From Falseniella ignava CCUG 37419 (lineage in GTDB: Bacteria > Bacillota > Bacilli > Lactobacillales > Aerococcaceae), in the NCBI RefSeq assembly GCF_000301055.1, contig NZ_JH932301.1, forward strand, positions 421,212-485,211: a DNA stretch of 64,000 bases. The letters are read 5' to 3'. Under the pieces are notes generated by a model that had not been told where the DNA came from, searched no databases, and saw only the letters and a list, made by a program, of their open reading frames with translations. Position 1 is the stretch's first letter; each line of letters starts with the position of its first letter. A program made the translations under genes and the position numbers. Of the stretch, positions 1,104 through 8,325 are shown piece by piece.

Positions 1104-2096
1104 ATGAGTGACGAATTCGGATAGCAACGGGGAAATCATCATCTACCAAAGTGAAGATGGAACTAGTAAATTAGACGTTAAACTTGAAGATGAAACCGTT
1201 TGGTTGACACAAGCACAACTCGTAGAATTATTTCAGTCTAGTAAAGCTAATGTTAATGAACATATAAAAAACATCTTCGATGAAGGAGAACTTGAAGAAA
1301 GTTCAACTGTTCGGGAATTCCGAATAGTTCGTCGAGAAGGAAGTCGAGATGTTGCTCGTAACATTAAACATTATAATCTGGATATGATTATCTCCCTTGG
1401 CTACCGCATCCAATCTAAAGTCGCTACGCACTTTCGTCGTTGGGCCACTGACCGTCTAAAAGAATACATCATTAAAGGATTCGCCCTAGATGATGAACGA
1501 CTTAAAGGTCAAGCAGGTGGCAATTATTGGAAAGAATTATTGGATCGTATCCGCGATATTCGCTCATCAGAAAAAGTCATGTACCGACAAGTCCTAGATT
1601 TATATGCAACGAGTGTTGATTATGATCTCAAGAACCAAGAATCTATCGCTTTCTTCAAGATGCAGCTCATGGGCATACAGCAGCTGAAGTGATTTATCAA
1701 AGAGCGGATGCAAACCAACCTTTTATGGGACTGACTACCTTTGCAGGTGCCATTCCGACTCTGAAAGATATTCAAGTGGCTAAGAACTACTTAAAGGAAG
1801 ATGAATTAAAAATTTTGAACAACTTAGTTTCTGGGTACTTTGATTTTGCTGAGGTTCAAGCTATACAACATAATCCCATGCATATGAGTGATTACGTTGA
1901 CCATTTGGATCGTGTCCTCAGTGTGACTGGCCGACCTGTCCTGCAATCCGCAGGCAAGATCAGTCACCAACAGGCCATGGATAAAGCGAAGAAAGAGTAT
2001 CGTGAGTATCAAAAGAATACTTTGTCGTCAGTGGAAGAGGATTATTTGCAGACAATTAAAGCACTGGAGCAAGAGGTCAAGAATGAAGGTAAATAA
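1104..2096 (+). pseudogene. rhuM: RhuM-family protein, frameshifted (copy 1)
   Basis: RhuM proteins are widespread island-borne proteins of unclear function, first named from a Salmonella pathogenicity island. The N-terminal part (EIIIYQSEDG, DETVWLTQAQL, REFRIVRREGSRDVAR, HYNLDMIISLGYRIQS) and the C-terminal part (IYQRADA, MGLTTFAG, YFDFAE) both match the family but are in different frames. The break lies near 1660, just before codons that read AHGHTAAEVIYQRA in the second frame; the expected segment resembling TVQNKMHW has gone, so a deletion caused the shift. The start is also damaged: ATG 1104 follows AAGGAGG ideally but hits TAG after six codons, while the coding frame begins with GTG 1108. 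Two in-frame ORFs result, 1108-1692 and 1689-2096. Probably inactive. Confidence 0.82.
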
Positions 2097-2104
2097 TAAT
2101 CTCG

Positions 2105-2258
2105 CCAACCATACTCCCTATCCACCATACCAAGAACAATCCAACTCCTATACTCGACATATATGGAGACATGCGCTGTCTTAACGAAGTCGAGCGCAAG
2201 CGAAGACTAAGTTTAGACGCGAAGTCGGTCTGCGACGATAGGAGCAGAGCATCCTTAA
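2105..2258. repeat. Dispersed intergenic element, divergent copy B
   Basis: This non-coding stretch between the two rhuM remnants shares CTATCCACCATA with the region at 3180 and the theme CCAA...CAATCC...ACATATATGGAG with the ACATGTTGAG copies at 86 and 4142. The match is loose, so membership in the family is an inference. Confidence 0.35.
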
Positions 2259-3082
2259 GAATCAACTATCCGGAAATTCCGGATAGTTCAAACAGAAGGC
2301 TCTCGTCAGGTAGCTCGTAACACCTTGCACTATAATCTTCAAATGATAATTGCTGTAGGTTTCAAGGTTAATTCAGAACGCGCAGTCCAATTTCGTAAAT
2401 GGGTGAATCAAATTACAAAGGATTATACGATCAGAGGGTGAGTCATGGATGATGAACGACTGAAACGCGGCACCTTTCTGATAGATAAATATTTCGATGA
2501 GCAGTTAGAACGTATTCGAGAAATTCGCGCAAGCGAAAGAAAGTTTTATCAAAAAGTAACTGATTTGTATGCTACAGCCATTGATTACGACAGAAATTCC
2601 GCGACAACACGACGATTTTACGCTTCCGTTCAAAAAAAATGCATTACGCAGTTCATGGGCACACAGCAGCTGAATTGATTGTAGAAAGAGCAAATCACTC
2701 CAGAAAGCATATGAATTAACGGACTTGGTCGGATGCGCCTGACGGAAAGATTAAGAAAAGTGATGTAACGATTGCCAAAAACTACTTAAGTCAAAGTGAA
2801 ATAAAACAACTAAATCGTATGGTAACGGCGTACTTGGATTTTGCTGAGACTATGACATTAAGGCATATCCCACTTACCATGCAAGACTGGGAGAAAAGAC
2901 TTAACAGTTTTATTGAAATGTTCGAATACGGCATTTTACAAGATGCAGGGAAAGTATCAGCTGAAATCGCTAAAATTCATGCTGAAACAGAATTTGAAAA
3001 ATATCGTGTGATTCAGAACCAACTATTTGTGTTAGATTTTGATAAATATTTATTGGAATTGGAAAATAAAAGGAAGGATTAA
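2259..3082 (+). pseudogene. RhuM-family protein, truncated and broken (copy 2)
   Basis: A second rhuM-like gene without its N-terminal third. It enters at ESTIRKFRIVQTEGSRQVAR and continues HYNLQMIIAVGFKVNSERAV. A TGA at 2440-2442 replaces the Trp expected in RGWVMDDERL. A one-base deletion in an A8 run near 2632 then throws the frame; the shifted frame reads MHYAVHGHTAAELIVERAN. A further lesion follows near 2700, where GLTT should be. The 3' part (2819-3082; YLDFAETMTLRHIPLTMQDW) is intact in frame. The two copies diverge clearly from each other, so they are separate acquisitions or an old duplication rather than a recent tandem copy. Confidence 0.85.
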
Positions 3083-6854: not shown

Positions 6855-6989
6855 GATAGATAATTAAAGAGAATAGATTTGGAATCTTTATATTTCAATA
6901 AAACTTAGCTAGTTCTATACTCTTTGCAAAAGACTCACTCAATACAAGTGAGTATGTTTATGGTGATAGAAGATTGATAGTATGTTAAT

Positions 6990-7087
6990 CTCGCCATTTT
7001 TGATTACTCATAGCCAAATTCATCTAAATGGCGAGTTTTATCTCGCCGATATTGTTTTATATACGCCAAATGTGGTATAATGGCGAG
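6990..7087 (+). promoter_or_regulatory. Promoter and duplicated operator of the first fic gene
   Basis: Two 46-bp elements, 6990-7035 and 7042-7087, each begin CTCGCC, carry GCCAAAT at the same internal position, and end AATGGCGAG. They start exactly 52 bp apart, about five helical turns. The second one contains the promoter: TTGTTT (7052-7057), 17-18 bases of spacer, TATAAT (7076-7081). A repressor bound there would block RNA polymerase. The gene product itself has a C-terminal winged helix, so autorepression is the simplest model. Confidence 0.75.
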
Positions 7088-7104
7088 AAGGGTGGTGATA
7101 GTTC

Positions 7105-8148
7105 ATGAGGGAATTTAATTATTCAAAATTACTTAGTTTAAATATTCCAGCAACGATGTATGATCTAATATCAAAAATATATGAGTATAAGGGAAAACAA
7201 GAACTGTATGTAGCTAATTTCCCGGATGTACTGGAAAAAATGGTAGAAGTCGCTAAAATTCAATCAACAAAATCATCAAATGCAATTGAAGGAATTTCTA
7301 CCAATGATAGTCGATTAGAAGAATTGATGAATAAAAAAAGTCAGCCCAGAAATAGAAATGAAGAAGAAATCTATGGGTATAGAGAAGTACTCGATATCAT
7401 TCATGAAAACTATGAGAACATTAAACTTACAAAAAATAATATTTTGACCTTACACAACAGATTATATTCTTACTCAGGGGAAAGTCATAAAGGGAAATTT
7501 AAGAGGATGGATAATAGTATCGTTGAAACTAACGAACTTGGAGAGAAAAGAATAAGATTTCAGCCTGTATCAGCGTTTGAAACAGAATATTATATTGATA
7601 AAATGATCAGTGCTTACGATGAAGCTATCAGTTTAAACATACCACCATTGTTACTAATTCCAGTTGTAGTTCATGATTTTTTATGTATTCACCCCTTTTC
7701 TGATGGGAATGGGAGAATGTCTAGGTTGCTAACACTACTACTTCTTTATCAAAATGGTTTTTTTGTAGGAAAATATATTTCTTTAGAAATGATTATCGAA
7801 GATACGAAAGATTTGTATTATGAAGAGTTACAAGCTTCAAGTGAAAATTGGCACTCAGGATATAACGACGAGTTACCATTTATAAAATTTATGTTATCAA
7901 TCATTTATAAAGCATATAGTGAATGTGATGAAAGATTTAAGATCATCGGAGAGAAATCACTGACATCCGCAGAAAGAGTGATGAAGGTATTTGAAAATTC
8001 CTTAGAAGCGCTATCCAAATCAGATATTGTTATACTTTGTCCGGATATTTCAAAGAGAACCATTGAGAGAGCATTAAAAGAACTAAAAGATGGAGGATTA
8101 ATCAAACAAGTTGGCAGTGGAAGAGCGACGAAATATATTAGAGCTTAA
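7105..8148 (+). CDS. Fic-domain protein with C-terminal winged helix
   Basis: A 347-residue stand-alone Fic enzyme, which would attach AMP from ATP to a protein target. The catalytic loop HPFSDGNGRMSR (near residues 196-207) is complete, with the catalytic His and the Asn-Gly-Arg that hold ATP. The autoinhibitory helix is on the same chain: SSNAIEGIS near residue 60 fits S-x-x-x-E-G, a class II arrangement in which activity is restrained until the helix moves. Residues from about 285 onward (SAERVMKVFENS, ISKRTIERALKELKDGGLI, GSGRATKYIRA) form a winged helix. The upstream DNA carries a duplicated operator, so self-regulation is likely. The ribosome site is weak (GGTGG). Confidence 0.92.
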   Translation: MREFNYSKLLSLNIPATMYDLISKIYEYKGKQELYVANFPDVLEKMVEVAKIQSTKSSNAIEGISTNDSRLEELMNKKSQPRNRNEEEIYGYREVLDIIHENYENIKLTKNNILTLHNRLYSYSGESHKGKFKRMDNSIVETNELGEKRIRFQPVSAFETEYYIDKMISAYDEAISLNIPPLLLIPVVVHDFLCIHPFSDGNGRMSRLLTLLLLYQNGFFVGKYISLEMIIEDTKDLYYEELQASSENWHSGYNDELPFIKFMLSIIYKAYSECDERFKIIGEKSLTSAERVMKVFENSLEALSKSDIVILCPDISKRTIERALKELKDGGLIKQVGSGRATKYIRA

Positions 8149-8325
8149 GATTATTAGCATCTACAAAAGTAGGTGCTTTTCTTATACCTAATTTCAGAAG
8201 GTGGCAAAATAGGTATTTTAAATTTAATAATTGCCCCAAGCAAATTGTTTGATGTTCATCCAATACAATCATACAGTTAATTAGAAAGAATGACGAACAT
8301 CCGATAGGAAAGAGAGGAATAAAAA

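What the first reader, a model, noticed from the sequence alone, without database searches (positions are those of the whole stretch)
6990..8148. Fic-HTH gene with two 46-bp operators exactly 52 bp apart
Seen: two elements (6990-7035, 7042-7087) share CTCGCC at the start, GCCAAAT at the same internal offset and AATGGCGAG at the end; the second one covers the -10. Known: class II Fic proteins carry their own S-x-x-x-E-G inhibitory helix. Inferred: the C-terminal winged helix of this Fic protein binds the elements, so one protein combines AMPylation, self-inhibition and autorepression.
Basis: partly seen in the sequence, partly recalled or inferred. Interest (0 to 1): 0.75.

Follow-up and report, generated by a model that had tools for sequence, protein, structure and literature searches.

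The report
Fic enzyme gene with self-matching operators
This bacterial protein-modifying (Fic) enzyme gene most likely switches itself off by binding a patterned set of short DNA sites at its own promoter, and the same layout, with a different DNA 'word' in each branch, occurs in front of its relatives across several bacterial phyla.

Summary
In detail: two 46-bp elements (6990-7035, 7042-7087) lie 52 bp apart upstream of a class II Fic gene (7105-8148). Their exact pattern occurs only there in the window, and in the 1.77-Mb genome at identical spacing. Autorepression through the C-terminal winged helix is well supported. The 'internal GCCAAAT' is a third half-site, so each element is left-middle-right, 20 bp apart. 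Half-sites are conserved in nine relatives (86% versus 59% for spacers). Across 161 homologues a four-part array (two direct and two inverted copies, about 20 bp apart) recurs. It scores above threshold in 69/161 fic promoters, 0/377 neighbouring genes and 0.12% of shuffles. Half-site sequence differs by branch and tracks recognition-helix residues (R318 with GCC; R322 with C at position 7 in 83/84 loci). However, only two independent changes occur on the tree, so this code is suggestive. The kind is known: Yersinia CccR is a Fic-HTH autorepressor with a 46-nt 10-N26-10 footprint (PMC9755527). New here are the 20-bp multi-half-site architecture, its breadth, the specificity code and a directly testable site. 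DNA binding and enzyme activity were not tested.

The parts
6989..6996 (+). Half-site L1, TCTCGCCA (left arm of element 1)
   Evidence: Sequence; mean pairwise identity 0.85 over 6990-6996 in 9 non-redundant promoters
7009..7016 (+). Half-site M1, CATAGCCA (the 'GCCAAAT' word), 20 bp after L1
   Evidence: Identity 0.92 over 7013-7017; CCAAA invariant; perfect half-site copy at this place in homologues
7029..7036 (-). Half-site R1, inverted (TGGCGAGT on + strand), 20 bp after M1
   Evidence: Identity 0.85 over 7029-7035
7041..7048 (+). Half-site L2, TCTCGCCG (left arm of element 2)
   Evidence: Identity 0.85 over 7042-7048
7061..7068 (+). Half-site M2, ATACGCCA, between -35 and -10
   Evidence: Identity 0.96 over 7064-7068
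7081..7088 (-). Half-site R2, inverted (TGGCGAGA on + strand), abuts the -10 box
   Evidence: Identity 0.82 over 7081-7087
7052..7057 (+). Probable -35 (TTGTTT; TTGATT/TTGACT in relatives), 18 bp before the -10
   Evidence: Sequence and alignment; only 3 of 6 to consensus, not listed by the scan
7076..7081 (+). -10 box TATAAT with TG at 7073-7074 (extended -10)
   Evidence: Sequence; identity 0.93 in relatives
7105..8148 (+). fic gene, 347 aa class II Fic protein with C-terminal winged helix
7276..7293 (+). Codons 58-63, inhibitory motif S-N-A-I-E-G
   Evidence: Sequence; S58, N59, E62 and G63 invariant in 33 homologues
7690..7725 (+). Codons 196-207, Fic motif HPFSDGNGRMSR
   Evidence: Sequence; near-invariant in homologues
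8053..8091 (+). Codons 317-329, predicted recognition helix including R318 and R322
   Evidence: AlphaFold2 model; residue/half-site association
8156..8177 (+). Intrinsic terminator-like hairpin just after the stop codon; gene appears monocistronic

Best explanation
A class II Fic AMP-transferase represses its own transcription. Its C-terminal winged helix recognises an about 8-bp half-site (here TCTCGCCA). The promoter carries six of them as two tandem left-middle-right triplets, neighbouring half-sites about 20 bp (two helical turns) apart and the triplets 52 bp (five turns) apart, so the corresponding sites lie on one face of the DNA. Element 2 covers both the -35 and the -10, so occupancy would block RNA polymerase; element 1 lies just upstream and probably adds cooperativity. 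The gene is monocistronic, so protein level sets its own synthesis, while the S58-xxx-E62-G63 helix holds the enzyme off. Shown by computation: the array, its conservation, its recurrence with clade-specific half-sites, and its near-exclusive location at fic genes. Inferred: binding by the Fic dimer, repression, AMPylation, self-inhibition. The broader role is probably phage defence or another abortive response, because relatives lie in prophages, plasmids and restriction loci; that part is weaker.
For: Exact double element, 0 of 100 shuffles, and found at identical 46-bp spacing only here in the genome. Half-site columns 0.86 versus spacer 0.59 identity in 9 promoters, p = 1e-7. In 77 homologue promoters, direct copies of the arms peak sharply at 20-21 bp upstream (36/77) and 20 bp downstream (37/77), against 0-5 at nearly all other offsets (up to 7 at the adjacent 19 bp). 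Four-part score >= 10.5 in 69/161 fic promoters, 0.12% of shuffles and 0/377 neighbouring ORFs. CTCCGCCA-N11-14-TGGCGGAG occurs 10 times in 298 genomes of the order, 9 of them just upstream of a fic match. R322 with C7 in 83/84 loci, R318 with GCC in 12/12. Recognition helix is the region with the highest partial correlation to half-site distance, 0.22 versus <= 0.05 for the Fic parts. CccR is an experimentally shown Fic-HTH autorepressor with a 46-nt 10-N26-10 footprint.
Against: No binding or expression data. R322/C7 changes only twice on the tree, so the association is not phylogenetically independent; in the column scan some Fic-domain columns correlated as well as recognition-helix ones, as clade markers would. 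The strict four-part model does not call the window's own locus, which lacks the downstream R' copy, and scores below threshold in 92 of 161 loci. Direct repeats L-M cannot be bridged by one symmetric dimer, so stoichiometry is unclear. CccR's measured stoichiometry is 1:2, and its core half-site spacing is 4 bp shorter than L-R here by my registration.
Confidence: 0.85

Rival explanations
1. The elements are operators of a different host transcription factor, not of the Fic protein.
For: No binding data exist here; elements overlapping a promoter could serve any regulator (sequence).
Against: The half-site sequence changes with the fic clade while the geometry stays; sites are essentially confined to fic genes; they travel with fic on prophages and plasmids of distant hosts; no regulator gene is conserved next to fic; CccR precedent.
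Confidence: 0.07
2. The repeats act as RNA or DNA secondary structure (attenuator, terminator of the upstream gene, or a mobile-element end) rather than as protein-binding sites.
For: 7029-7048 scores as a terminator-like hairpin and the arms can pair.
Against: The hairpin lies upstream of and overlapping the fic promoter, and L and M are not transcribed from it. The upstream gene has its own terminator-like hairpin at 6933-6953. Direct repeats at 20 bp do not form hairpins, yet they are the recurrent feature.
Confidence: 0.04
3. The winged helix binds the sites but mainly controls enzyme state (DNA-bound dimer silent or deAMPylating) or another gene, with little repression of fic.
For: CbFic2 is proposed to change from AMPylating monomer to deAMPylating dimer on DNA binding (PMC10628234).
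Against: Sites cover the -35 and -10 of the fic promoter; the gene is monocistronic; CccR represses its own promoter 3.3-fold.
Confidence: 0.04

Closest known systems
CccR (YPK_0951), Yersinia pseudotuberculosis, Fic + C-terminal HTH autorepressor (PMC9755527)
   Same: Fic domain plus C-terminal winged helix; operator near -35/-10 of its own promoter; outer arms 10-N26-10 = 46 bp; half-site AGATAATCAT resembles the NNNNATCA(T) class found here in other homologues.
   Different: Distant in sequence (PDB 7xux, presumed to be CccR: phmmer E 7.5e-5, about 18% identity by Foldseek); one element reported rather than two triplets; no middle half-site described; secreted T6SS effector in a Gram-negative host.
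CbFic2 of Coxiella burnetii (PMC10628234, PDB 8cil)
   Same: Class II Fic with C-terminal winged helix that binds DNA; fold match.
   Different: Only random DNA was tested; no specific site or autorepression known; host-directed.
SoFic / EcSofic anti-phage Fic proteins (PMC12249575; PADLOC SoFic)
   Same: Class II Fic plus C-terminal domain; PADLOC SoFic hit E 4e-39; relatives of the window gene on prophages and plasmids.
   Different: Far below the NCBIfam SoFic equivalog cut-off (49 versus 550 bits); no AS1-like antitoxin downstream; DNA binding had not been shown for SoFic as of PMC10628234.
Bordetella bronchiseptica Fic family protein (PDB 8uqu)
   Same: Closest solved relative, E 3e-79 along the full length.
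   Different: Only the N-terminal domain is resolved; regulation not described in the papers held.

Membership tests
Class II Fic AMP-transferases | HPFx(D/E)GNGRxxR catalytic motif | tested here: met
   HPFSDGNGRMSR at residues 196-207, near-invariant in homologues
Class II Fic AMP-transferases | Inhibitory S/T-xxx-E-G/N motif N-terminal to the Fic core | tested here: met
   S58-N-A-I-E62-G63; invariant positions
Class II Fic AMP-transferases | AMPylation and its release on inhibitory-glutamate mutation | not testable with these tools
   Needs biochemistry
CccR-type Fic-HTH autorepressors | C-terminal winged helix | tested here: met
   AlphaFold2 model, pLDDT about 90, helices 305-311 and 317-329 with beta wing; Pfam DIP2311-like_C 24.7 bits, just under cut-off 27
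CccR-type Fic-HTH autorepressors | Inverted-repeat operator over the promoter of its own gene | tested here: met
   6990-7087, conserved and recurrent
CccR-type Fic-HTH autorepressors | DNA binding by the HTH and repression of the own promoter | not testable with these tools
   Needs gel shift, footprint and reporter
CccR-type Fic-HTH autorepressors | Secretion by a T6SS | not tested
   Host genome is in the same family as Trichococcus (Lactobacillales), where T6SS is not expected (general knowledge)
SoFic anti-phage system (NCBIfam NF046030 equivalog) | Equivalog score cut-off of 550 bits | tested here: not met
   49 bits
SoFic anti-phage system (NCBIfam NF046030 equivalog) | PADLOC SoFic profile | tested here: met
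   E 4.4e-39, 132.9 bits
SoFic anti-phage system (NCBIfam NF046030 equivalog) | Small downstream antitoxin gene (AS1, 47 aa, described for EcSofic) | tested here: not met
   Terminator-like hairpin 8156-8177 right after the stop; only 26- and 35-aa ORFs downstream on the same strand
Phd-Doc / FicT-FicA toxin-antitoxin modules | Separate antitoxin gene in the operon | tested here: not met
   Monocistronic gene; nothing conserved beside it in most homologues

The most novel reading that the evidence does not exclude
In a widespread family of Fic-winged-helix enzymes the operator is both transcriptional switch and enzyme latch: several dimers assemble on 20-bp-phased half-sites of a branch-specific sequence, shutting off both their gene and their AMPylating activity. 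In one branch the same device would sit at the head of a fic-hsdM (type I restriction) operon, making the Fic protein its controller.
Probability: 0.25. Interest if true: 0.82.

Novelty: new variant of a known kind. Interest (0 to 1): 0.62.

Why it matters
Fic enzymes with winged helices are widespread and include anti-phage proteins. DNA binding changes the activity of one (CbFic2), yet its specific site is unknown, and in the literature held here only one member (CccR) has a mapped operator. A predicted operator for about 70-80 homologues, with a simple layout and a candidate residue-to-base code, makes regulation of this family directly testable by gel shift, reporter fusions and activity assays with and without cognate DNA. 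It also lets members be recognised from promoter sequence.

Tried and rejected
Single best-palindrome search without fixed geometry: finds the signal but mixes registers, replaced by the geometry model. Partial Mantel and column scan: recognition helix is the best region (0.22) but individual columns are dominated by clade markers such as 136 and 167, so I do not claim column-level proof. Tree-based independent pairs: only 1-3 independent changes, no significance possible. Hairpin/attenuator and foreign-regulator readings: rejected as primary, see rivals. Conserved partner gene: none overall; only subclade associations. Paper searches beyond CccR, CbFic2 and SoFic found no other Fic-wHTH operator in the open-access library held. 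The CccR promoter itself was not fetched, so its 26-bp spacer could not be checked for a middle half-site.

Full report
What is there. The gene at 7105-8148 encodes a 347-residue Fic protein (Pfam Fic 2.2e-16). The catalytic motif HPFSDGNGRMSR (196-207) and the class II inhibitory motif S58-N-A-I-E62-G63 are intact, and S58, N59, E62 and G63 are invariant in 33 homologues. An AlphaFold2 model built from that alignment has mean pLDDT 91.7 and shows a C-terminal winged helix with the recognition helix at 317-329. The closest solved relative is a Bordetella bronchiseptica Fic protein (8uqu); the fold also matches SoFic, CbFic2 and 7xux, presumably CccR. A terminator-like hairpin follows the stop codon at once (8156-8177) and no convincing small downstream gene exists, so the gene looks monocistronic.

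The elements. The outer pattern CTCGCC-N34-GGCGAG is found twice in the window and in 0 of 100 shuffles; in the whole genome it has this spacing only here. The internal GCCAAAT is a third half-site. Written as 8-mers ending in A (L2 ends in G), the half-sites are L1 TCTCGCCA (6989), M1 CATAGCCA (7009), R1 inverted (7029), L2 TCTCGCCG (7041), M2 ATACGCCA (7061) and R2 inverted (7081): steps of 20, 20, 12, 20 and 20 bp. Element 2 contains a perfect extended -10 (TATAAT, 7076-7081) and a weak -35 (7052-7057) that is better in relatives.

Conservation close to home. Eleven promoters of genes 69-100% identical to this one (the window included), from several genera and from prophage contigs, keep both elements, though element 1 is weakened in a few. 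After removal of near-duplicates (nine left), half-site columns have mean pairwise identity 0.86, spacer columns 0.59 and the -10 0.93 (Mann-Whitney p = 1e-7). The middle half-sites are the best conserved of all (0.92 and 0.96), which is the main reason to count them as part of the operator.

Conservation of layout, change of word. Homologues at 38-55% identity have different half-sites but the same layout: CTCCGCCA in enterococci, CTCCATCA or CTGCATCA in many Clostridia, Bacteroidales and Spirochaetes, TCCCTTAA in another clostridial branch, TCGCCTAA, CTATGTCA, TTTTATCA and others. In 77 non-redundant promoters a direct copy of the left palindrome arm lies 20-21 bp upstream in 36, and of the right arm 20 bp downstream in 37; nearly all other offsets give 0-5, with 7 at the adjacent 19 bp. 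A four-part model (L-20-M, inverted R, R-20-R') scores at least 10.5 in 69 of 161 fic promoters, against 0.12% of shuffles and 0 of 377 neighbouring genes in the same loci. The strict model misses loci with degenerate or differently arranged copies, including the window itself, which has L-M-R twice and no R'.

Dedicated to fic. In 298 genomes of the order the core CTCCGCCA-N11-14-TGGCGGAG occurs ten times. Nine lie just upstream of a fic gene found independently, two of these in front of broken fic copies; the tenth (G253) is a different perfect inverted repeat with N13. This argues for a regulator whose main or only target is its own gene.

Who binds. The half-site differs by fic branch in step with the recognition helix. 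R318 goes with GCC in 12/12, K318 with GTC in 3/4, and V/T/I318 mostly with ATC. R322 goes with C at position 7, and G/N/I/V/K/S/A with A, in 83 of 84 loci. For five loci of the window's own group the half-site was assigned by hand from the alignment. The recognition helix has the highest partial correlation with half-site distance given Fic-domain distance (0.22, 0 of 2000 permutations; Fic regions <= 0.05). The caution is real: R322 status changes only twice on the tree, so this is not independent statistical proof, and several Fic-domain columns correlate as clade markers.

Mechanism and precedent. CccR of Yersinia pseudotuberculosis is a Fic-HTH protein that represses its own promoter 3.3-fold, binds as a dimer through its HTH, and protects 46 nt, AGATAATCAT-N26-ATGATAATCT, near the -35 and -10 (PMC9755527). 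The outer-arm layout here is the same 10-N26-10. By my registration of the core 8-mers, CccR's L-R distance is 36 bp and here it is 40, so the match is of type rather than exact register. The paper reports 70.2 A between the DNA-binding helices of the CccR dimer. At 3.4 A per bp this equals 20-21 bp, the M-R spacing found here; I infer that a dimer bridges M and R, with L (and R' where present) held by further subunits. For CbFic2, DNA binding is proposed to convert an AMPylating monomer into a deAMPylating dimer, but only random DNA was used (PMC10628234); the operators here offer cognate DNA for that test in this branch. SoFic-type proteins defend against phage (PMC12249575, PMC11514479). 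The window protein matches PADLOC SoFic but fails the NCBIfam equivalog cut-off, so I do not file it as SoFic.

Verdict. Confirmed observation; interpretation right in kind, amended in architecture, and preceded by CccR in principle. New variant of a known kind. What is shown is sequence pattern, conservation and specificity by location; binding, repression and enzyme control are inference.

Noticed in passing
L039, L051, L057, L058, L061, L067, L069, L079, L086 (e.g. L061 2501-5153): In this branch fic lies directly upstream, same strand, of a type I restriction hsdM gene (PADLOC MTase_I 3e-182 in L061), so the Fic operator could control a restriction operon, like a C protein.
   Followed up: partly
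L143 295-5020; also L013, L024, L149, L151, L155, L158: fic sits between terminase large subunit and portal genes in a prophage contig (86% identical to the window protein), and near terminase-like genes in other loci.
   Followed up: partly
window 1108-3082: Several consecutive short ORFs, the first a RhuM (Virulence_RhuM) match, look like decayed or frameshifted RhuM copies.
   Followed up: no
G086 (L112), G114 (L110): Broken fic copies with internal stops still have an intact CTCCGCCA operator upstream.
   Followed up: no
G030 C1:1469806-1470842 (L003, L011): A 91-92% identical relative in the same family matches in two overlapping pieces, as if frameshifted, while its operators are largely intact.
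   Followed up: no
L039 upstream 200 bp: In the hsdM-linked branch two palindromic elements flank the promoter rather than overlap it, a different use of the same half-sites.
   Followed up: no
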